From positions 204,368 through 268,367 of the forward strand of contig NZ_JAUXVR010000041.1 in assembly GCF_030680395.1 (NCBI RefSeq): a DNA stretch of 64,000 nucleotides, read 5' to 3'. This DNA is from Methylobacter sp. GTDB lineage: Bacteria; Pseudomonadota; Gammaproteobacteria; Methylococcales; Methylomonadaceae. The notes below the pieces were generated by a model. The model saw nothing but the letters and a program-made list of their open reading frames with translations, made no database searches and was not told where the DNA came from. A program made the translations under genes and the position numbers. Positions 5,286 to 32,415 of this stretch are shown piece by piece (position 1 is the first letter of the stretch; every line of letters starts with the position of its first letter).

Positions 5286-8200
5286 TCAAGATAATGGATC
5301 GTCATCGTTAATAACTTTATCCATGCAAGCGATTAGTTTTTTAGCCAGGATTCTGACATGAGGCTCTCTGAATATATCAAAATGCGCTCCGGAAACCTGT
5401 TGAACTTCCAGCTTGTGACCCAGAAGTTTTTTCCATGCCTGTTCTGGACGGACATAGCTAATAAACTTACTCGTCGACTCCCATCCTTGAAATAGAGTTA
5501 CATGACTGCCGTTATAACTTTTTGGTTGATAATTATTGTGACAAGCGTTGTCAGGTGCTGATGTATAAATATGGGGCCAGAAATCCGTGCCGTATTTATA
5601 GGAAGTTCCCAGATCATTGATTTTATTTTTGATCTTTTTCAAGAGCTGGCTTGGGCTTAGACTAAAAAAATTACAGATAACCCGATGATAAGGCAGCCAC
5701 TGCTTTTCATGTGTCAGGTGGGTATCCATCAATCCTACCAAGTTCACTTGATGTCCATTTGTAACTAATTGGCAGGCCATTTCATAGGCAATCACGCCAC
5801 CAAAGGAAAACCCGATCAAATAGTAGGGGCCATGCGGCTGTATCTGTTGCAGTTCCTTAATATAGTGGCTGGCCAGATCTTCCAATAAGGGTAGGGAGAG
5901 AGAACGATTGCCAATCTCTGCTGCCATACCGTATCGTAAGAAATATAGCGGCTGATCCTTTCCAAGATGTCGCGGCAAGTCTACTAGGGATAATGTGTGA
6001 ATCGCGAATAAGGGAGGCCGTGAACCTTGCGTTTGAATCGGAACAAGGGAATACCATGAAGGCTGCCGGTTACCGGACGATATTATTATTCCAAGTTCTT
6101 CAACTAGTGGAGATTGGTAAATTGCGCCCAAGGGTAAGTCGATATTGAACAGCTTATTAACCTCAGCAACCATCTTAACCACTAACAAAGAATGCCCGCC
6201 CAACTCGAAGAAATTGTCGCGAATGCCGACCCGATCAATCTCCAAAACATTGCACCATATCTCGGCCAGCTGCTTCTCCACCGGATTGCGAGGGGCGATA
6301 AAATCGGCTTCCAGTTCTTGCTGACTTTGATCCGGCTTCGGCAGAGCCTTTCGATCCAGCTTGCCATTGGGAGTGAGCGGCAACGCGTCGAGGCATACAA
6401 ACGCCGAAGGGATCATGAACTCCGGCAACTTAGGCTTAAGAAAGTCTCGTAGCTCGGAAACGAGTGGTGCGGGAGTACTTTGGGGTACTAGATATGCCAC
6501 CAGGCGTTTGTTCCCGGGAACGGGTTCGTACACTTCCACCACGACCTCAAACAGTTGCGGGTGTTGTCCCAGCACCGATTCAATTTCACCCAGCTCAATA
6601 CGAAACCCGCGAATCTTAACCTGATGATCTATACGCCCCAGAAATTCAATAGTGCCGTCAGGCAGATAACGAGCCAGATCGCCGGTTTTATATAAGCGAG
6701 CATGCGGATCATCATTGAAAGGATGTTTAATGAATTTTTCAGCGGTTAACTCAGGACGATTGAGGTAACCTAGCGCTAAACCATCGCCGCCAACATGAAT
6801 TTCTCCTGATACACCGATAGGGACCGGCTGTAAGAGCGCATCCAGAATATAGATTTGGGTGTTGGCAATGGGGTATCCAATGGGAATTGAAGTCGCTTGA
6901 TCAGCAATCGTTTTCGGAATCGGGTAACAGCAGGCAAATGTAGTACTCTCGGTAGGACCGTAACCATTAATTAATTGAGTGTCAGGTAATTGCTTAAGAG
7001 CGCGATTAATATGGCTTATAGATAAAGCTTCTCCGCCAGTCAGGACTTGTGCAACGGTGCTGAGAATCTGGGGCTTTTCATCGATAACGGTATTAAATAA
7101 TGAGGCTGTTAACCATAGAATACTGATTTGCTGCTGCTTGATTATTTTTTCCAGACTACTCAAAATCGGGACTCGTTCAGGATAAATAACACAGCGAGCA
7201 CCATGAAGCAGCGCACCCCATACTTCAAAGGTAGAGGCATCAAATGCAATGGATGCTAATAATAAGAATTTCTGCTTATCATCAAATCGGGCATAGGTAT
7301 TATTTAATATCAATCTTGCAATATTGTAATGGCATACCTCAACGCCTTTAGGCACTCCGGTAGAGCCCGAAGTGTACATAACATAAGCCGGATTGTTCAA
7401 GGCAGTATTGCAATGCAGATTGTCGGTACTTCCCTGATTAATATCATTCCAGCATGTATCGAGACAAACAAGCCGGCCTGAACAAATCGGTAATTGTGCA
7501 ACCAGTGAAGAATGCGTCAATAGTACCCGGGCATTTGTATCCTCCAGCATAAAAGCCAGACGATCCCGAGGGTAAGTCAGATCAAGCGGCACATAAGCCC
7601 CACCTGCTTTGAGTATAGCCAGCAGGCCGATCACCAGATCAATAGAGCGATCCATGCAAATAGCCACCCGGGTACCCGGTTTGACACCCACTGTTTGCAG
7701 GTAATGCGCCAGTTGATTGGCTTTGGCGTTAAGCACCTGATAACTCAGTTGTTGATCTTCAAAAACCAGCGCGATGGCATCCGGTATCTTTGCCACCTGC
7801 TCTTCAAAGAGTTGATGGATACATTTATCTTTCGGATAGTCAGTACGGGTGGCATTCCATTCGACCAATAACTGGTGACGTTCAGGTGCAGTGAGTAGCG
7901 GCAATTCAGCAACGGCGGTTTCCGGGTGCTCGACTATTGCTTCCAGTAAAGTTTGAAAATGGCTGCCCAGCCGGGTAATGGTTTCGGGATTGTACAAGTC
8001 CGTTCTGTATTCAATCGTACCGGTTAAGCCATCGCGATGCTCCACTAATGAAAGTGTCAAATCAAACTTGGCCGTCTCGTTGGTTACAGTAAGGTCGGTA
8101 ATCGTCAGGCCGGGTAATTGCATGTCTTGCAATGCCGTAGATTGCAAGACCATCATGACCTGAAACAACGGATTCCGACTCATATCCCGTTGTACCGGCA

Positions 8201-24679: not shown

Positions 24680-24766
24680 GCCGGGGTGGCGGAACTGGTA
24701 GACGCGCCGGATTCAAAATCCGGTTGGGGTGACTCAGTGCCGGTTCGATTCCGGCCCTCGGTACCA
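24680..24766 (+). tRNA. tRNA-Leu(CAA)
   Basis: GCCGGGGTGGCGGAACTGGTAGACGCGCCGGATTCAAAATCCGG...GGTTCGATTCCGGCCCTCGGTACCA; anticodon loop TTCAAAA gives CAA; encoded CCA; class II variable arm. Confidence 0.95.
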
Positions 24767-24839
24767 AACATTGGTTCAGAGCCGTGCAAAGAACTACAAA
24801 AACCCGCAAGTCATAAGGCTTCGCGGGTTTTTTATTGTC
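24744..24839 (+). repeat. Left direct repeat (att) comprising tRNA 3' end plus terminator
   Basis: TTCGATTCCGGCCCTCGGTACCAAACATTGGTTCAGAGCCGTGCAAAGAACTAC...TTTATTGTC, nearly identical to 32321-32415. Confidence 0.93.
24799..24836 (+). terminator. Rho-independent terminator after tRNA-Leu
   Basis: AACCCGC...GCGGGTT stem followed by a T run; duplicated at the island's right end (~32375-32412). Confidence 0.8.
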
Positions 24840-24880
24840 CAGCGAAATGCAACCAAATACAGCGGTATTCATCCAAAAGT

Positions 24881-24901
24881 ATGTCCTTTATTATGTCCTT
24901 T
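24881..24901 (+). promoter_or_regulatory. Candidate integrase arm-type sites, left pair (ATGTCCTTT x2, 12-bp period)
   Basis: ATGTCCTTTattATGTCCTTT, matched by an equivalent pair at 32252-32272. Confidence 0.5.
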
Positions 24902-24943
24902 GCTATAGTGCTTAAAAAAAGGATATAAATTAAAGGGTATAAA

Positions 24944-26197
24944 ATGGCTAAGAATATCAATAAAGATGTGGTCTACAAGTCGGCCAAGTCTAAAGAAAAA
25001 GATTACATGCTTAATGATGGTGAGGGCCTGTATTTGTTTGTTGGTAAAACCGGCGCTAAGTTGTGGCGGTTTATTTATACGTTTGACAGAAAACAAAAGA
25101 AACTCGCTCTTGGTGGTTACCCCGGTATTACTTTAGAAGCAGCCCGAGACAAAGCAGAAAAAGCGCGTGACAATATCACCAAGGGCAACGACCCCGGAGA
25201 GATCAGAAGCGAAGATAAAAAAGCGCGGCAACTCTTAGCATCAAATAAAGAGCGATTAGCTGAAGGCCTGCCGATACTAAACAGTTTTAAACATATCACC
25301 CTAGAATGGTTAAGCTCTATTGAGCACCTGACAAAAGCAACCACTCAAACCAAGAAAACATCAAGACTTGAACGCCTAGCCTTTCCTTTAATTGGCGACA
25401 TGGCTATCAATCAGATTAAATCATCCGACGTACTGGCCGTCATTAAACCCGTAATAGATAAAAAACAGCTTGAGACAGCTCACAGACTACACAGCGAAAT
25501 AAGCGCCATTTTTGCTTATGCCATTGTTCATAACTTCACTGATTACGACCCCGCTCAACCTGTAGCCAAACAGATACCCGCTCAAAAACCCAAACACAGA
25601 GCTGCTATCATAGACCCTAACTTGTTTGGGCAATTGCTCAGGGACATAAATAACTACAACGGCACCTTTGTTGTACAGTTAGCCTTTCGATTTTCACCGC
25701 TGGTCTTTCAACGACCTGGAGAGATACGTCAATTATTATGGTCAGATATTGACCTCGTAGCGCGTGAATGGCGACCTTATATTAGCAAGACTGACTTCTA
25801 TCACATTGTGCCTCTGTCCTCTCAAGCTGTCAGCATACTGGAAGCAATCAAACCGCTAACAGGTACAGGTCAATATGTTTTTCCGTCTAGTCGTGGTGAT
25901 GGTCGGCCTATGTCAGATGGTACGATTAGAACGGCGTTAAAGTCGCTAGGTTATGATTCCGATGTAATGACCGCGCACGGATTTAGGACAACAGCCTCAA
26001 CGCTTCTTAATGAGCAGGGATGGAGTCCTGACGCAATCGAAAGGCAACTAGCACACGCTCCAAGAGATCATGTTAGGGCCGCTTACAACAGGGCGCAATA
26101 TCTTGAAGAACGTAGACGGATGATGCAAAGCTGGGCTGATTACCTGGACAGCTTAAAGAATGGCGCGCAAGTGATACCATTTAAGAAGATCGGGTAA
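24944..26197 (+). CDS. Tyrosine recombinase/integrase, DUF4102 (P4-like) family
   Basis: DGEGLYLFVGKTGAKLWRFIYTFDRKQKKLALGGYPGITLEAARDKAEKAR; C-terminal RPGEIRQLLWSDID, HGFRTTASTLLNEQG, ERQLAHAPRDHVRAAYNRAQYLEERRRMMQ. Confidence 0.97.
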   Translation: MAKNINKDVVYKSAKSKEKDYMLNDGEGLYLFVGKTGAKLWRFIYTFDRKQKKLALGGYPGITLEAARDKAEKARDNITKGNDPGEIRSEDKKARQLLASNKERLAEGLPILNSFKHITLEWLSSIEHLTKATTQTKKTSRLERLAFPLIGDMAINQIKSSDVLAVIKPVIDKKQLETAHRLHSEISAIFAYAIVHNFTDYDPAQPVAKQIPAQKPKHRAAIIDPNLFGQLLRDINNYNGTFVVQLAFRFSPLVFQRPGEIRQLLWSDIDLVAREWRPYISKTDFYHIVPLSSQAVSILEAIKPLTGTGQYVFPSSRGDGRPMSDGTIRTALKSLGYDSDVMTAHGFRTTASTLLNEQGWSPDAIERQLAHAPRDHVRAAYNRAQYLEERRRMMQSWADYLDSLKNGAQVIPFKKIG

Positions 26198-26341
26198 ATC
26201 CGCTAACAACCAAGAACTACTAAATTAACACCTGATACAATCAAATTAACCGGATAGCTCGACGGAGCAATAAGCAGGATTCGTTGCCCTGTTTCCGGTT
26301 ATTCCTGCTTAACGCACTTCACTTTAACTAGGTACTTTTTT

Positions 26342-27010
26342 ATGTTGGTCATGTATAGAGGATGGGGCTGTTTTGATTATGAATTAGATATTGATGCCAT
26401 GAATGTATGTACAAGCAAGGACTGGGAAATCGGCGAAAGATGGCGCGAACCTGAACAATGGGTGGAAGCCTGTGTATTTGAGCTAACAAAACATAATGAA
26501 AGTGAGATTGCAGCTCGGGGAGAATCAAACGTTGAATACCTATTGCTATCTGAACACTCATACCTTGATGAAATGGAACTGAATTTTCCTTATTCGAATA
26601 AGAAAGATATTCGATTTTACTTGTGCGAGGATGAGCCAGCATATGCAAACGGCTACTATCAACGACGCGAACAAAAAACGTTTCCGTATGCAATTGGTGA
26701 CATCTTTGAAGCTGCGTGCATTGGCAATGTACCGAAAAAGCAGACCGAAACCGAATTAAACAACTTATTAATGCCGCCAGCATATCTTAATCCAAATCAT
26801 CCCACGTTCAGTTTAGAACTAGATATTGCTATCAAGGCCTGGACTGCTGTTCTTGAATGTAATCCTGACAAGCCAAAACAGGGTAGCCGAAGGAAGTTTA
26901 TAGCAGAATGGCTAGAAAAACATCATTCGACATTAACTGAAGAAGCAAAAAATCGCATAATCACTTTGCTGAATCCAGATAAAAACGGCGGCGCTCCTAA
27001 ATCTATTTAG
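26342..27010 (+). CDS. Hypothetical island protein, 222 aa
   Basis: Long ORF between integrase and alpA-like gene; no recognised family. Confidence 0.7.
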   Translation: MLVMYRGWGCFDYELDIDAMNVCTSKDWEIGERWREPEQWVEACVFELTKHNESEIAARGESNVEYLLLSEHSYLDEMELNFPYSNKKDIRFYLCEDEPAYANGYYQRREQKTFPYAIGDIFEAACIGNVPKKQTETELNNLLMPPAYLNPNHPTFSLELDIAIKAWTAVLECNPDKPKQGSRRKFIAEWLEKHHSTLTEEAKNRIITLLNPDKNGGAPKSI

Positions 27011-27167
27011 AAAACCTACCCACCCAACAAAGCCATATAAAACAAGGCTTACAGAGAACTTGCCCACCTAAAAACCATAAACATCTGGAACTGTTCCAGC
27101 TATTCATAAGCAAAAATATTCCCATAATAGACAACCATGTTAACTAAGCACAGAGGAGTGCAACAAC

Positions 27168-27398
27168 ATGGCAACAGTATCAAATCATCTACCCGAAACC
27201 GGTTTTATAAGATTGCCGCAAATAATTGGCAATAAAAAAACCAACATCCCCGCACTTATTCCCATAAGTCGCACATCGTTCTTAAATGGCGTTAAGTCTG
27301 GTAAATATCCAAAGCCAGTAAAGTTAGGCGAAAGAACAACAGCATGGCGCGTTGAAGATGTTCGCGCCTTAATAGCCAGCCTTGGAAGTGCAGCATGA
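27168..27398 (+). CDS. AlpA-family-like DNA-binding regulator
   Basis: IPISRTSFLNGVKSGKYPKPVKLGERTTAWRVEDVRALIASL is a typical AlpA wHTH. Confidence 0.85.
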   Translation: MATVSNHLPETGFIRLPQIIGNKKTNIPALIPISRTSFLNGVKSGKYPKPVKLGERTTAWRVEDVRALIASLGSAA

Positions 27399-28624
27399 CC
27401 AACGCACTCACCGGTAAAGAAAAAATACTACGTTATATTGAACAAAAAGCTGAAGATACAAAACAACAGTTAGCAACAACTGAAAGTGCGCCACCACTAC
27501 AGTTAAAAAATATTGCAGTAAGAACAGGGCAAAAAGAAATATCATTCCCATTGGTATCAGCAGCAACGATGACTGACAACCAAGTTCAAATTGAATGGCT
27601 AGTTGAAAATGTTATTGAACAAGGTAGTTTAAATTTACTGTTTGGCGAACCTGCTTCAGGCAAGTCTCTATTTGCATTGGATTGGGGGTTTTGTATAGCA
27701 GCAGATATGAGTTGGCATGGCTACCGTACTAAACAAACAGATGTAGTTATTATTGCTGGAGAAGGTTTTGCTGGTATGCAGCGGCGATTAAAAGCGTTAG
27801 AAGTTAAGTACAATATGAAAGCCCCGGAAAGTCTATTTATTAGTCAACAGCCTGCGCAATTACTGGACAAAATAAACGCGCAATTAGTAGCCAATAGCAT
27901 TAAGGCAATATGTCCTAACCCCGGCCTTGTTATTATCGACACTTTGCATAGAAATATGGACGGCGATGAGAACAGCAGCCAAGATATAGGTAAGTTTATC
28001 AATAACCTTGATATGTATATGAAGCCATTGGGAGCAGCTATTCTTGTTGTGCATCACAGTGGGCATGGAAATAAAGACCGAAGCCGGGGCAGCAGTTCAA
28101 TTAGAGCAGCAATGGATGGCGAATTTTCAACCATAAAGAAAGATAATTGCATTACACTAACTTGTCATAAAGCTAAAGATTTTGAAGCACTTAATCCACT
28201 GCAATTCACTTTAAAAACTACTGAACTTGGGTGGCTAGATAGTGATGATAAGCCGATGACTAGCGTTTATCTTGAATATGGAGGCCTAGCAACTACCGAT
28301 AAGAAGAACAAATTAACGGCTAAAGATGAGGCAATCTTAACCTGCTTGGATGCTGCAATTGTGGAGCATGGAATAGAGCCGACAGCAGAAATTAAACTCA
28401 AGTTTGGTGAATTTAATTCCCCGACTGGCAAGATGCAAAAGATTGTTAATATCGACCATTGGCGGGAAAAGGCTTATCCGTCTATGGTAGTGACTGGAAA
28501 AGACCCCGAAAACGCCAAGAGAGTGGCATTTAAACGGTGTAGTGACAAACTGTTGAATCAAGGTCTGATTGTTAAATGCGACAATTATGTATGGCGAGTA
28601 TTTGACGAAAAAACCGAACACTGA
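27395..28624 (+). CDS. RepA-like AAA ATPase/helicase (AAA_25)
   Basis: Walker A NLLFGEPASGKSLFALDWGFCIA; PGLVIIDTLHRNMDGDENSSQDIGKFINNLD; VVHHSGHGNKDRSRGSSSIRAAMD; overlaps the alpA-like gene by 4 bp. Confidence 0.88.
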   Translation: MTNALTGKEKILRYIEQKAEDTKQQLATTESAPPLQLKNIAVRTGQKEISFPLVSAATMTDNQVQIEWLVENVIEQGSLNLLFGEPASGKSLFALDWGFCIAADMSWHGYRTKQTDVVIIAGEGFAGMQRRLKALEVKYNMKAPESLFISQQPAQLLDKINAQLVANSIKAICPNPGLVIIDTLHRNMDGDENSSQDIGKFINNLDMYMKPLGAAILVVHHSGHGNKDRSRGSSSIRAAMDGEFSTIKKDNCITLTCHKAKDFEALNPLQFTLKTTELGWLDSDDKPMTSVYLEYGGLATTDKKNKLTAKDEAILTCLDAAIVEHGIEPTAEIKLKFGEFNSPTGKMQKIVNIDHWREKAYPSMVVTGKDPENAKRVAFKRCSDKLLNQGLIVKCDNYVWRVFDEKTEH

Positions 28625-28724
28625 ACAGAACCGAACAAAATCGAACAAGTGTTCAGGGGTACATAGCGAACGAACACGAACACACTTCTTTAGAAGTGTT
28701 CGGTTGTTCACTAACCAGTTCACC
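28614..28724 (+). repeat. GAACA/TGTTC repeat cluster, candidate replication origin (iterons)
   Basis: GAACA at 28616, 28623, 28633, 28643, 28672, 28678 plus GAACG at 28668; TGTTC at 28650, 28697, 28705; GTTCACC at 28718; at the 3' end of the RepA-like gene. Confidence 0.5.
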
Positions 28725-29116
28725 ATAATAATAATTGATGCCCAAATTATTTTATTTAACGAACTACGCATTATAAGAACATTTGCAGGAGGTGTTACTT
28801 GCAGGATGAATAACCTTGCTAGTACTTAGTAGGAGCAACTAATAAAGCCAATGCTACTAGCACCAAGCCAGCAGGCTAAGGTACTCCCTGTGCTTCTACT
28901 AACAGGCGCACACTTAACAGCCTATTGAAATTCAACTCCAGTATTTCCCGGTTTAGTGTAGTAACTAATTAATGCTACTTATAGGGTAATTAAGACAATT
29001 ACTACTTGCAGAGGTAAGGTAGTTACTTAGTTATACCTTTTGTAGGTTTGTCTTTACTATGAATATTTAAAATAAATTATAATTAAAATAAGTTTTATTT
29101 TAATTAACCCGGAAAG

Positions 29117-29548
29117 TTAAAAGATCCAAGTTGAATTACAGTTATCGCAATGTGCTTGTGTATTATCTTCCTTCCTGGATAAACCTACTGCAAGTATTGA
29201 CAACCCTCCTGTAAGTATTGCCCCGGTAGCTTTAGCCCCACTTAATCCTTTCTTGAGTTTTACGTATTTTGCATGAACCTTTCCTTTAGTTTGGCAATGT
29301 GGACATATTATTGCTGTATTGATTGCCCCATATTCAATTTCTAGTTTTCTTTGGTTCTCTTCTGCTAAACGAAGTTGCCGCTCCTGCTCTTTATGCATCT
29401 TCTGCTCTTCATACATCTGTTTTTCCTCGGGAGTCATAGAAGCTATTTTCTCTTGCTCTTGCTCCCACCGCCTTTTATCTCTGAGTATAAGTCCACTTAT
29501 CATGATAATGAAGGGTAAAAGTACTATATAGAAAAATGTTGAATTCAT
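29117..29548 (-). CDS. Hypothetical membrane-anchored zinc-ribbon-like protein
   Basis: N-terminal TM (FFYIVLLPFIIMISGLIL), charged coiled region, CPHC...HCDNC cysteine pairs. Confidence 0.65.
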   Translation of the reverse strand: MNSTFFYIVLLPFIIMISGLILRDKRRWEQEQEKIASMTPEEKQMYEEQKMHKEQERQLRLAEENQRKLEIEYGAINTAIICPHCQTKGKVHAKYVKLKKGLSGAKATGAILTGGLSILAVGLSRKEDNTQAHCDNCNSTWIF

Positions 29549-29701
29549 GGATACTCACCACATAGATATTGAAAGGTTCTTATAGCTTTATAGGCACCTG
29601 TTTTAATTGTAGAAATAAATAAGCAAATAACCCGCGCATATTTAACTTTGCCTAGTACCTTGCTATCTGGCATATAAAGGTACATAAAGACTAATCCTAT
29701 C

Positions 29702-30883
29702 TTACTTAGGTGGTAGCACTATATCAGCTAATTTTTTAATCTGTTCAGGCGATGCCATCTTTAGCATTTTATTTAAATCATTTTGTACTTGTTGCTTTTC
29801 AGCCGCCGTCATTTCGGCATATTCTTTAGAAGGTAATTCCACCCCATCTTTGAGGCGTATTTCACTATTTTTTTGCCCGTTTTCATCCCACAACGTCATT
29901 AATCCATCATATTTCCCATCTTTTAAATGGGCTACACCTTTTTTATTTCCATTTGAATAATATGTTTTATATCTTCCAGTAAAAGGTTTATCCTCATTTG
30001 GTAAATAAGCAATATCATTTCTAATGTCTAAATCTTCTTTAGTGACTCGCTCCTCTTGTGTTGTAGATGTAGGCGTGGTTTCAGCACTTGGTGCGGTAGG
30101 GCTGTGGGTGGCTTCAGTCACTACAATCATACGTTCATCAATTGCAGGCCCGTGGTCATAAGTATATTTAAGAGTAAACTTAGCTGAAGTAATTGTTTTA
30201 TTAGTATTTCCTAAAAATAATTTATTCAATTCCTTTGCTTTTTCGGGTGCGTATAACTCTATAAGTACTTTTAATGCCTTATTAGCTTCTTGTTTATCTG
30301 AATGGAGTCCATACCCCATATCCTTAAACCAATCATTCCAAAGAAACTTTACATTGCTAACACGCTTAGATACTGGGTTTTCATTAATAAACCACTTGAC
30401 GGTTCCTGCTTTTCCTAGAATACACCCGTATAAAGCACCATCCCCCTCAAAGGATGCTGGAGTTATATCGGAATCAACTGAATTAGAGCAGTCAAGTTTA
30501 TTTTTTGTCGTTTCGGCCTCAGTACGAAAGGAGCCGAAGAAAACATTTTTCTTATCATTAACTTTGGTAGGCGAAGTTGCAAGTACGGGCGCGGGCGGTT
30601 TCTTAGTTGATTCATCACTTATAGAGCCTCCCTTTACAAACCCTTTCTCTTTAAAGCATTCATCTTTTGCATATTCACCCAAATGACCTGCATCACTATA
30701 ATTTTTTGGGTTTCTATACAACTCCCTGTCAATTGCACTATTTTTAGAGTTTTCGCATTCCTCTAAAACTCTTTTATATTCATCATTAGTTACATCTTTT
30801 TTGTAATAATTCTGTGTTGGATATGTGGAGTCACATTTCACTACAACAAAAATAATAACAATAACAATAATGATTAATGGCAT
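29702..30883 (-). CDS. Membrane-anchored protein with MORN/YwqK-like repeats
   Basis: N-terminal TM; FTGRYKTYYSNGNKKGVAHLKDGKYDGLMTLWDENGQKNSEIRLKDG. Confidence 0.6.
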   Translation of the reverse strand: MPLIIIVIVIIFVVVKCDSTYPTQNYYKKDVTNDEYKRVLEECENSKNSAIDRELYRNPKNYSDAGHLGEYAKDECFKEKGFVKGGSISDESTKKPPAPVLATSPTKVNDKKNVFFGSFRTEAETTKNKLDCSNSVDSDITPASFEGDGALYGCILGKAGTVKWFINENPVSKRVSNVKFLWNDWFKDMGYGLHSDKQEANKALKVLIELYAPEKAKELNKLFLGNTNKTITSAKFTLKYTYDHGPAIDERMIVVTEATHSPTAPSAETTPTSTTQEERVTKEDLDIRNDIAYLPNEDKPFTGRYKTYYSNGNKKGVAHLKDGKYDGLMTLWDENGQKNSEIRLKDGVELPSKEYAEMTAAEKQQVQNDLNKMLKMASPEQIKKLADIVLPPK

Positions 30884-31158
30884 TTTTTCACCTAATTATT
30901 TTAATTTTCCTTAATGGGCAATCAATCTCATTGATCAGTTTAGCGACTTATCATTGCTTAGTTCGGATTGTAGCAATCAATAGGTACAGAGACTTAGCAG
31001 TTAGGGAAATTCGACTAAATACTCAATATCTTAAGGGTGGCTCGGTTACTGCTAAACCAAAAGTTTAATTACTTACTCTCATTTAGCTATTATAGATATA
31101 TCTAGTGCTGCGTATTGAACGCGACAAGTACCGAAATACTAAAGTGCTAACATTTTAA

Positions 31159-31689
31159 CTATTGAATACATGCTTTAATTTTGTCAGCAATTGTCTTAAT
31201 TGCGTCAAGTGCATTTCCTGGTCTACATCCAGACAATACGCAAATATGCTCAAATCCATCATTAGATAAATAACCGGTATTTTTCATAGCATGAGCGATA
31301 TTGTAGAACTTAAGCGTTATATTGCTACCCTTAGCCGAAGCCTTTAAGTCATATTGGATAAAGTCTATACTCCCTCCATCCGCAATACCTTTTGCAATTA
31401 TTGTTGAAGTGGATTCATCTGAATATTTAAATATATCCCCACCCTGAATAGTTTGTCCTGTATGTGGGCCGGCAAATAAGCTTGAACTTGAAGCGTCCTT
31501 CAGTGTCACTGTTTTATTATCTACATTTTCAGCAATACAAAGCTTAATATTAGCAAACTCTTTTGGTTTATCCGCTTGGTATGAAAAATCCATTGTATCT
31601 ATATTTTTGTCTTTTACTGTCACGTTACTTGGTAAATTTACCGTGGCACATCCAGATAGCAATGCACACAAAACCATTATTTTCTTCAC
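31159..31689 (-). CDS. Predicted lipoprotein
   Basis: MKKIMVLCALLSGCATVNLP lipobox; no known domain. Confidence 0.7.
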   Translation of the reverse strand: MKKIMVLCALLSGCATVNLPSNVTVKDKNIDTMDFSYQADKPKEFANIKLCIAENVDNKTVTLKDASSSSLFAGPHTGQTIQGGDIFKYSDESTSTIIAKGIADGGSIDFIQYDLKASAKGSNITLKFYNIAHAMKNTGYLSNDGFEHICVLSGCRPGNALDAIKTIADKIKACIQ

Positions 31690-32251
31690 ATTTACCCTCT
31701 CGATTAATTAATTTGCCACGATACCAAAAATCCTGCCGGATTAATTTAAACACTACAATAATCTATTAGCCGACTGATTCATAGTCAGCCAAAGCTTACA
31801 CTACCCACAACGATTATATTATCTATAGGTACTTACCAAAATTTGAACTGAGAAAGTTGGTAGATAAAATCTGACAGCCTTGTATCTGTACGCACACTGG
31901 CAAACCCTCGCGGAGTACCTTAGCCCAACATAAAGCTTGGTATTACTAATTTTGAGTTGTTAAGCGGAAATGATAGCCTTAACGGTTGATAGCGGTTACA
32001 CACATATAGGCTTTATCTGTGCTACGCTTTAACATTCACACCAATTATTCAGCTGTCCATATTGTCCACTGGTTGCCCACTTGGTAATAAATTAAGGCAA
32101 TAGATGTCAATTCACCACCGCTATAGATGCAAAGTTGGCGGTCAGGGTGATAACGTAAAGATTAAGGCTAGGTAACATTGCTTTTTTTATGGCTGAAATT
32201 CCGGCAAGTGTTGCGGGTGTTTTTCATTTTTAGGAGGTAGAAATCAAATTT

Positions 32252-32272
32252 ATGTCCTTTTTTATGTCCTTT
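32252..32272 (+). promoter_or_regulatory. Candidate integrase arm-type sites, right pair (ATGTCCTTT x2, 12-bp period)
   Basis: ATGTCCTTTtttATGTCCTTT, same orientation and spacing as 24881-24901. Confidence 0.5.
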
Positions 32273-32320
32273 TGATTGATTATGTTTTTATGCTATTTAT
32301 TATCAATAAGTTATAGCTTA

Positions 32321-32415
32321 TTCGATTCCGGCCATCGTACCAAACATTGGTTCAGAGCCGTGCAAAGAACTATAAAAACCCGCAAGCCGTAAGGCTTCGC
32401 GGGTTTTTTATTGTC
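32321..32415 (+). repeat. Right direct repeat (att)
   Basis: TTCGATTCCGGCCATCGTACCAAACATTGGTTCAGAGCCGTGCAAAGAACTATAAAAACCCGCAAGCCGTAAGG...TTTATTGTC. Confidence 0.93.

What the first reader, a model, noticed from the sequence alone, without database searches (positions are those of the whole stretch)
24744..32415. 7.7-kb integrative element at tRNA-Leu(CAA) with unusually long duplicated att region
Flanking direct repeats of 96 and 95 bp run from the tRNA T-arm through CCA to the end of a Rho-independent terminator. Inside are a P4-type integrase next to the tRNA, an AlpA-like regulator and a RepA-like ATPase with 4-bp overlap, then divergently oriented envelope-type cargo. No capsid, tail or conjugation genes are visible, so it looks like a minimal satellite-like or mobilisable island that may depend on a helper. 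The long att repeat carries a second copy of the terminator.
Basis: partly seen in the sequence, partly recalled or inferred. Interest (0 to 1): 0.65.

Follow-up and report, generated by a model that had tools for sequence, protein, structure and literature searches.

The report
PICI-like phage satellite in a methanotroph
A 7.6-kb piece of mobile DNA sits in a leucine tRNA gene of a methane-eating bacterium; its parts, and the scar it left in the duplicated tRNA end, match a family of parasites that are thought to travel inside virus particles and may penalise cells that lose them.

Summary
In detail: a 96/95-bp direct repeat (tRNA T-arm through terminator) brackets a 7.6-kb island with int, orf222, alpA, an RSF1010-RepA-like helicase and three exported or unknown cargo proteins. 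No structural or transfer gene was recognised. Two same-genus genomes have this tRNA-Leu(CAA) locus without the island; relatives carry the same module at several tRNAs.

The long repeat is not itself odd: strand exchange falls in the tRNA acceptor stem, so the element brings a replacement tRNA end and terminator. (1) Every readable attR of this integrase clade (11/11; Leu, Ser, Cys) has a deletion of 1 to about 20 nt starting after tRNA position 69, while three excised-form (attP) junctions in viral contigs are intact. This attR 'tRNA damage' was published as PICI-specific and proposed to act as an addiction. (2) A doubled, 12-bp-period motif flanks the core at fixed distances, as in helper-embedded PICIs, but its sequence changes per element.

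Induction, helper and packaging are untested, and the att core here carries a mismatch, so this copy may be locked in. Best filed as a new, small variant of Gram-negative PICI-like satellites, in Methylococcales.

The parts
24680..24766 (+). tRNA-Leu(CAA), target gene; its 3' end was rebuilt by the element (attL)
   Evidence: ARAGORN
24744..24839 (+). attL repeat copy: T-arm, acceptor stem, CCA, spacer, terminator; downstream of the core it is element-derived
24752..24759 (+). probable strand-exchange core CGGCCCTC (tRNA positions 62-69), inferred
24797..24833 (+). element-borne rho-independent terminator, left copy
   Evidence: hairpin -19.5 kcal/mol, z -5.2
24880..24901 (+). doubled arm-type motif TATGTCCTTTAT-TATGTCCTTT, 12-bp period, 113 bp after the tRNA end
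24944..26197 (+). int, tyrosine integrase, 417 aa
   Evidence: Pfam, PHROGs, NCBIfam
26342..27010 (+). orf222, no family match; same place as the int-neighbour gene (iolg) of PICMIs; 48% to the G018 copy; absent in the closest complete relative L163
27168..27398 (+). alpA, AlpA-family excisionase/regulator, 76 aa
   Evidence: conserved in relatives
27395..28624 (+). repA, AAA_25 hexameric-helicase-like replication protein, 409 aa, overlaps alpA by ATGA
29117..29548 (-). cargo: 143-aa membrane-anchored zinc-ribbon-like protein
29702..30883 (-). cargo: 393-aa lipoprotein-like protein with C-terminal MORN_2 domain; weak EexN match at its N-terminus
31159..31689 (-). cargo: 176-aa lipoprotein (GTG start), phrog_29243; not found in 60 relatives
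32251..32272 (+). doubled arm-type motif, right end
32321..32415 (+). attR repeat copy: tRNA 3' fragment plus the chromosome's own terminator
32329..32336 (+). core CGGCCATC in attR (one mismatch to attL), followed directly by the 1-nt deletion (CTCGGTACCA -> ATCGTACCA) after tRNA position 69

Best explanation
A small Gram-negative PICI-like phage satellite, integrated by its own tyrosine integrase into tRNA-Leu(CAA). Int binds doubled arm motifs on both sides of the core and exchanges strands in the acceptor stem near tRNA position 69, so the island supplies a new acceptor end and a new terminator (attL), and the chromosome's own end and terminator are pushed to attR. During integration the displaced tRNA end is damaged just past the core (1 nt here). 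AlpA, probably switched on by a helper phage, acts with Int to excise; RepA drives replication; a helper's packaging machinery would carry the DNA. Because excision joins the tRNA body to the damaged end, it should leave a broken tRNA-Leu(CAA), which would penalise loss. Shown: the element, its anatomy, the locus without island, related insertions, damage in attR and its absence in attP forms. Inferred: excision, helper, packaging and addiction.
For: Locus without island in two same-genus genomes. The same int plus alpA module at tRNA-Leu(CAA), Leu(GAG), Leu(UAA), Ser, Cys and tmRNA across the family. attR damage starts after tRNA position 69 in 11/11 readable attRs of this integrase clade (8 Leu 1 nt; Ser 3 and 4 nt; Cys 20 nt), whereas three attP-form junctions in viral contigs (L061, L065, L078) are intact. 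PMC10111431 reports such damage only for PICIs. Doubled motif 112-115 bp past the attachment gene in 10 elements, 0/200 shuffles; attP motif spacing 208-211 bp in four viral contigs and 205-208 predicted for seven integrated copies, against 81+132 bp in HE-PICIs. Viral relative L061 (int 63%, alpA 70%) carries a TerS homologue. int-alpA-replication order with no structural genes fits published PICI criteria (PMC6092414).
Against: No excision, induction, helper or particle data. No terS, capsid-remodelling or interference gene found in this copy. 7.6 kb is below the 12-15 kb given for Gram-negative PICIs. The att core differs at one base between attL and attR, which could block excision. IMG/VR contigs are predicted, often from bulk metagenomes, so attP junctions show excision but not packaging. 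PICI specificity of tRNA damage comes from one study of mostly Enterobacteriaceae. That the deletion arises at integration rests on three attP forms from diverged relatives.
Confidence: 0.66

Rival explanations
1. A decayed, now immobile island: once mobile, today locked in by drift in attR and kept for its cargo or by chance.
For: attL/attR core mismatch; the G010 copy has lost int, alpA and repA and other relatives keep only attL remnants or a broken int (G015, G007, G001).
Against: int, alpA and repA are intact open frames with conserved arm motifs at both ends and the alpA/repA overlap; decayed relatives show what loss looks like.
Confidence: 0.2
2. A mobilisable element moved by conjugation machinery of a resident ICE or plasmid, with RepA only for copy maintenance.
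For: RepA belongs to the IncQ RSF1010 RepA fold family; weak EexN (entry-exclusion lipoprotein) match in the 393-aa cargo.
Against: No relaxase, MobC-like or T4SS gene; closest int/alpA/rep relatives are viral contigs with TerS or chromosomal islands; RepA matches 827 phage records but 21 plasmids.
Confidence: 0.07
3. A minimal island that rides in phage particles without a dedicated satellite cycle (generalised or jumbo-phage transduction), with AlpA only controlling excision.
For: Pseudomonas int+alpA islands without transfer genes are carried by a jumbo phage (PMC12595487); no packaging gene in this copy.
Against: Dedicated replication gene coupled to alpA; relatives with TerS or with a capsid-protease fusion; PICI-type att damage.
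Confidence: 0.1
4. The 1-nt attR deletion is an inherited property of attP or shared ancestry, not damage at integration; the elements are ordinary integrative islands.
For: All Leu copies have the same 1-nt loss, so common descent could explain part of it.
Against: Deletion length differs by tRNA (1, 3, 4, 20 nt) but starts at the same position; three attP-form relatives are intact; downstream of the deletion the attR copy is host-type, not element-type, in G006 and L163.
Confidence: 0.2

Closest known systems
Gram-negative PICIs and helper-embedded PICIs (PMC6092414, PMC10111431)
   Same: int-alpA-replication order, no structural genes, tRNA targets, attR tRNA damage starting at a fixed acceptor-stem site, doubled 12-bp-period motif at fixed distances on both sides of the core (HE-PICIs).
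   Different: 7.6 kb instead of 12-15 kb; RepA-type AAA_25 helicase rather than a pri/rep primase; doubled motif varies in sequence per element; damage seen at tRNA-Leu and Cys, not in the published list; host order Methylococcales.
PICMI (PMC10803314)
   Same: Size 6-8 kb, int, gene beside int, alpA, replication gene, cargo, no capsid-remodelling gene.
   Different: PICMIs sit at fis with a 17-bp repeat, carry a DUF3987/DUF5906 primase and complete ones are reported only from Vibrionaceae.
tmRNA islands I23/I44/I55, one moved by a jumbo phage (PMC12595487)
   Same: int plus alpA, no transfer genes, RNA-gene target.
   Different: Larger, 14-bp repeat at tmRNA, alpA at the far end, defence cargo.
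Methylotuvimicrobium buryatense 5G island (L173/L057) and Lac Pavin MAG island (L163)
   Same: Same int-alpA-repA module; L163 is 73/64/64% identical and about 7 kb.
   Different: Inserted at tRNA-Leu(UAA) and tRNA-Leu(GAG) with other cargo.

Membership tests
Gram-negative PICI | Integrase, master regulator (AlpA) and replication module in conserved order | tested here: met
[quoted passage not shown]
Gram-negative PICI | Size about 12-15 kb | tested here: not met
   7.6 kb; described as typical rather than absolute in PMC6092414
Gram-negative PICI | Attachment site never used by prophages | not tested
   Only islands were seen at this tRNA in the relatives read; no prophage survey done
Gram-negative PICI | Phage-dependent induction | not testable with these tools
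   needs culture
Gram-negative PICI | Specific packaging into phage particles | not testable with these tools
   attP-form relatives in IMG/VR are suggestive only
Gram-negative PICI | attR tRNA damage at a fixed acceptor-stem site (reported for some tRNA-targeting PICIs) | tested here: met
   criterion
HE-PICI | Doubled motif TGTATTGC x2 about 81 bp up and 132 bp down of the core | tested here: inconclusive
   Geometry and 12-bp period met, sequence not (TATGTCC here)
HE-PICI | Integration in a prophage late gene | tested here: not met
   tRNA-Leu next to queA
PICMI | Integration at fis | tested here: not met
PICMI | Primase with DUF3987/DUF5906 | tested here: not met
   AAA_25 only
cf-PICI / capsid-bearing satellite | Own capsid and packaging genes | tested here: not met
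P4-like satellite | P4 structural regulators (sid, psu, delta) and alpha replication protein | tested here: inconclusive
   No PHROG or Pfam match to such genes; dedicated P4 models not run
Integrative mobilisable element | Relaxase and/or oriT | tested here: not met
   No relaxase by Pfam/NCBIfam; oriT not searched

The most novel reading that the evidence does not exclude
Satellites of this integrase clade actively damage the displaced tRNA end when they integrate, always just past tRNA position 69, so that excision leaves the host with a broken, here apparently single-copy, tRNA-Leu(CAA): an addiction that needs no toxin, spread through methane-oxidising bacteria, with arm motifs that change sequence but never spacing.
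Probability: 0.35. Interest if true: 0.75.

Novelty: new variant of a known kind. Interest (0 to 1): 0.52.

Why it matters
My literature searches found no description of phage satellites in methanotrophs, a group that matters for methane budgets (open-access library only). If the reading holds, the attR damage published for PICIs extends to another bacterial order and to tRNA-Leu and tRNA-Cys. The contrast between intact attP and damaged attR makes the proposed tRNA addiction testable, and a simple sequence signature (doubled motif, attR deletion after position 69) could find such satellites in other genomes. A relative lies in the workhorse methanotroph Methylotuvimicrobium buryatense 5G, where experiments are possible.

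Tried and rejected
Crossover inside the terminator hairpin: rejected, since left and right copies differ in the loop and in L163 the whole spacer after CCA differs. Early idea that the G deletion belongs to attP: made less likely by intact attP forms. Membership in PICMI: rejected on site and primase. Conjugative mobilisation: no gene support. G010 as a refutation of the element: it is a decayed copy. orf222 structure: AlphaFold gave pLDDT 41, not usable. RepA single-sequence scan of viral contigs found nothing; the profile scan found phage-type Toprim-helicase neighbourhoods only. Close DNA matches in phage records are tRNA genes only, as far as listed.

Full report
OBSERVATION. The window holds one tRNA gene, tRNA-Leu(CAA) at 24680-24766. 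Its last 22 bases or so and the following 73 recur at 32321-32415 (79 bp at 96% plus a 1-nt indel). Both copies fold as terminators. Between them lie int, orf222, alpA, repA on + and three cargo genes on -. Domain searches give a P4-type integrase, a weak AlpA, an AAA_25 ATPase and no structural, packaging or conjugation gene; the ATPase family profile matches RSF1010 RepA. GC is 38.7% in the island against 46.6% in the window.

LOCUS WITHOUT THE ISLAND, RELATED ISLANDS. In G019 and G011 the order tRNA-Leu(CAA), terminator, right-flank genes occurs without the island, with short unrelated spacers (about 264 and 880 bp). Related int+alpA islands occupy the same tRNA in G018, G006 and, in another genus, G034 (int 69-85%); the rep module there can differ (G034 has a VapE-type protein). 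G010 keeps both repeats 5.9 kb apart but has lost int, alpA and repA and holds a transposase; G001 has a broken int, and G015 and G007 have attL remnants. The closest full relative, from a Lac Pavin methanotroph MAG (L163), sits at tRNA-Leu(GAG): int 73%, alpA 64% (74% in the local match), repA 64%, same ATGA overlap, about 7.0 kb, lipoprotein cargo. Close RepA relatives were found only in Methylococcales. AlpA relatives (E <= 1e-10) occur in 63 of 151 genomes of the family and in 36 viral contigs. Two of the 'same genus' genomes match records titled Methylobacter, so the host is probably Methylobacter (inference from contig lengths).

ATT ARCHITECTURE. A doubled motif of 12-bp period starts 112-115 bp after the attachment gene in ten elements and recurs at the right end; its sequence is element-specific (TATGTCC here, GTTACC in G006, CGTGTCC in G034, GGGGGTAT in the tRNA-Cys element), 0 of 200 shuffles reaching the observed score (L170 was measured from its repeat, not from an RNA gene). 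Joined at the ends, seven integrated copies predict 205-208 bp between motifs; four viral contigs (L061, L065, L078, L190) show that junction directly, at 208-211 bp, and ARAGORN finds no tRNA in L061. The long repeat is thus the fixed-length stretch between core and arm motif, used as replacement tRNA end and terminator.

WHERE STRANDS EXCHANGE. In G006, G034 and L061 the element-side T-loop differs from the tRNA upstream of the core; in G006 and L163 the left copy is element-type and the right copy host-type just after CCA. The exchange therefore lies in the acceptor stem or CCA region. All eight readable tRNA-Leu attRs lack one G directly after position 69; tRNA-Ser attRs lack 3 and 4 nt and the tRNA-Cys attR about 20 nt from the same position. 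The Ser and Cys cases are hand alignments of the printed sequences. The attP-form junctions L061, L065 and L078 have full-length ends (my reading). Two alpA elements at tRNA-Pro with a distant integrase (L268, L271; int about 23%) have intact repeats, so the damage follows the integrase clade.

COMPARISON. [quoted passage not shown] Published PICI criteria (PMC6092414) are met except for size; induction and packaging were not testable. PICMIs have the same minimal gene order but differ in site and primase. A viral relative, L061, carries a protein 35% identical over 67% of its length to an annotated terminase small subunit (E 7e-10); Pfam and PHROGs gave no match for it.

MECHANISM. Shown: integration module, att geometry, damaged attR, intact attP relatives. 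Inferred: AlpA-triggered excision, RepA replication, helper packaging, and a tRNA penalty on loss. Only one tRNA-Leu(CAA) copy was seen among the listed DNA matches in this draft genome, but tRNA-Leu(UAA) might partly cover UUG, so the strength of any addiction is unknown. The own genome holds a prophage head and packaging module on contig C42 that could be a helper; this was not tested. The one-base core mismatch between attL and attR leaves open that this copy no longer excises.

Noticed in passing
L055:5604-15766 (G000:C23): Second island of the same genome, at tRNA-Cys(GCA): int 47%, alpA, Toprim protein, 658-aa protein and an S78-protease/HK97-type capsid fusion (phrog_4523, E 7e-127); possibly a capsid-bearing satellite.
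   Followed up: partly
L303 (G000:C42:104000-123500): Prophage head module: terminase small and large subunits, portal, head morphogenesis, scaffold, major head protein.
   Followed up: partly
window 24797-24838, 32373-32414; relatives L273-L302: The terminator ACCCGCnnGnnnnnAGGCTTnGCGGGTTTTTTATTG has four copies in the own genome, all at ends of the two islands; among the copies read in relatives, those with an RNA gene beside them lie at Leu, Ser or Cys tRNA or tmRNA genes. Islands may be replacing host terminators over time.
   Followed up: partly
L061:1-349 and 6874-7075: Arrays of ~85-bp repeats at both contig ends, inverted to each other, with related copies at the start and end of the primase gene; possible replication origin or assembly break.
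   Followed up: no
L053 (G007), downstream of tRNA-Leu: attL remnant of an island runs straight into a CRISPR-like repeat (TTCATCCCCACGGGTGTGGGGAACAC).
   Followed up: no
L170/L264 (Methylobacter marinus A45): 9-kb relative at the 3' end of a protein gene (30-bp repeat), with anti-repressor, CHC2-type primase fragment, RepA and a phage-type 130-aa protein.
   Followed up: partly
L049 (G034): Related island with a VapE-type replication protein and a UmuC-like polymerase as cargo.
   Followed up: no
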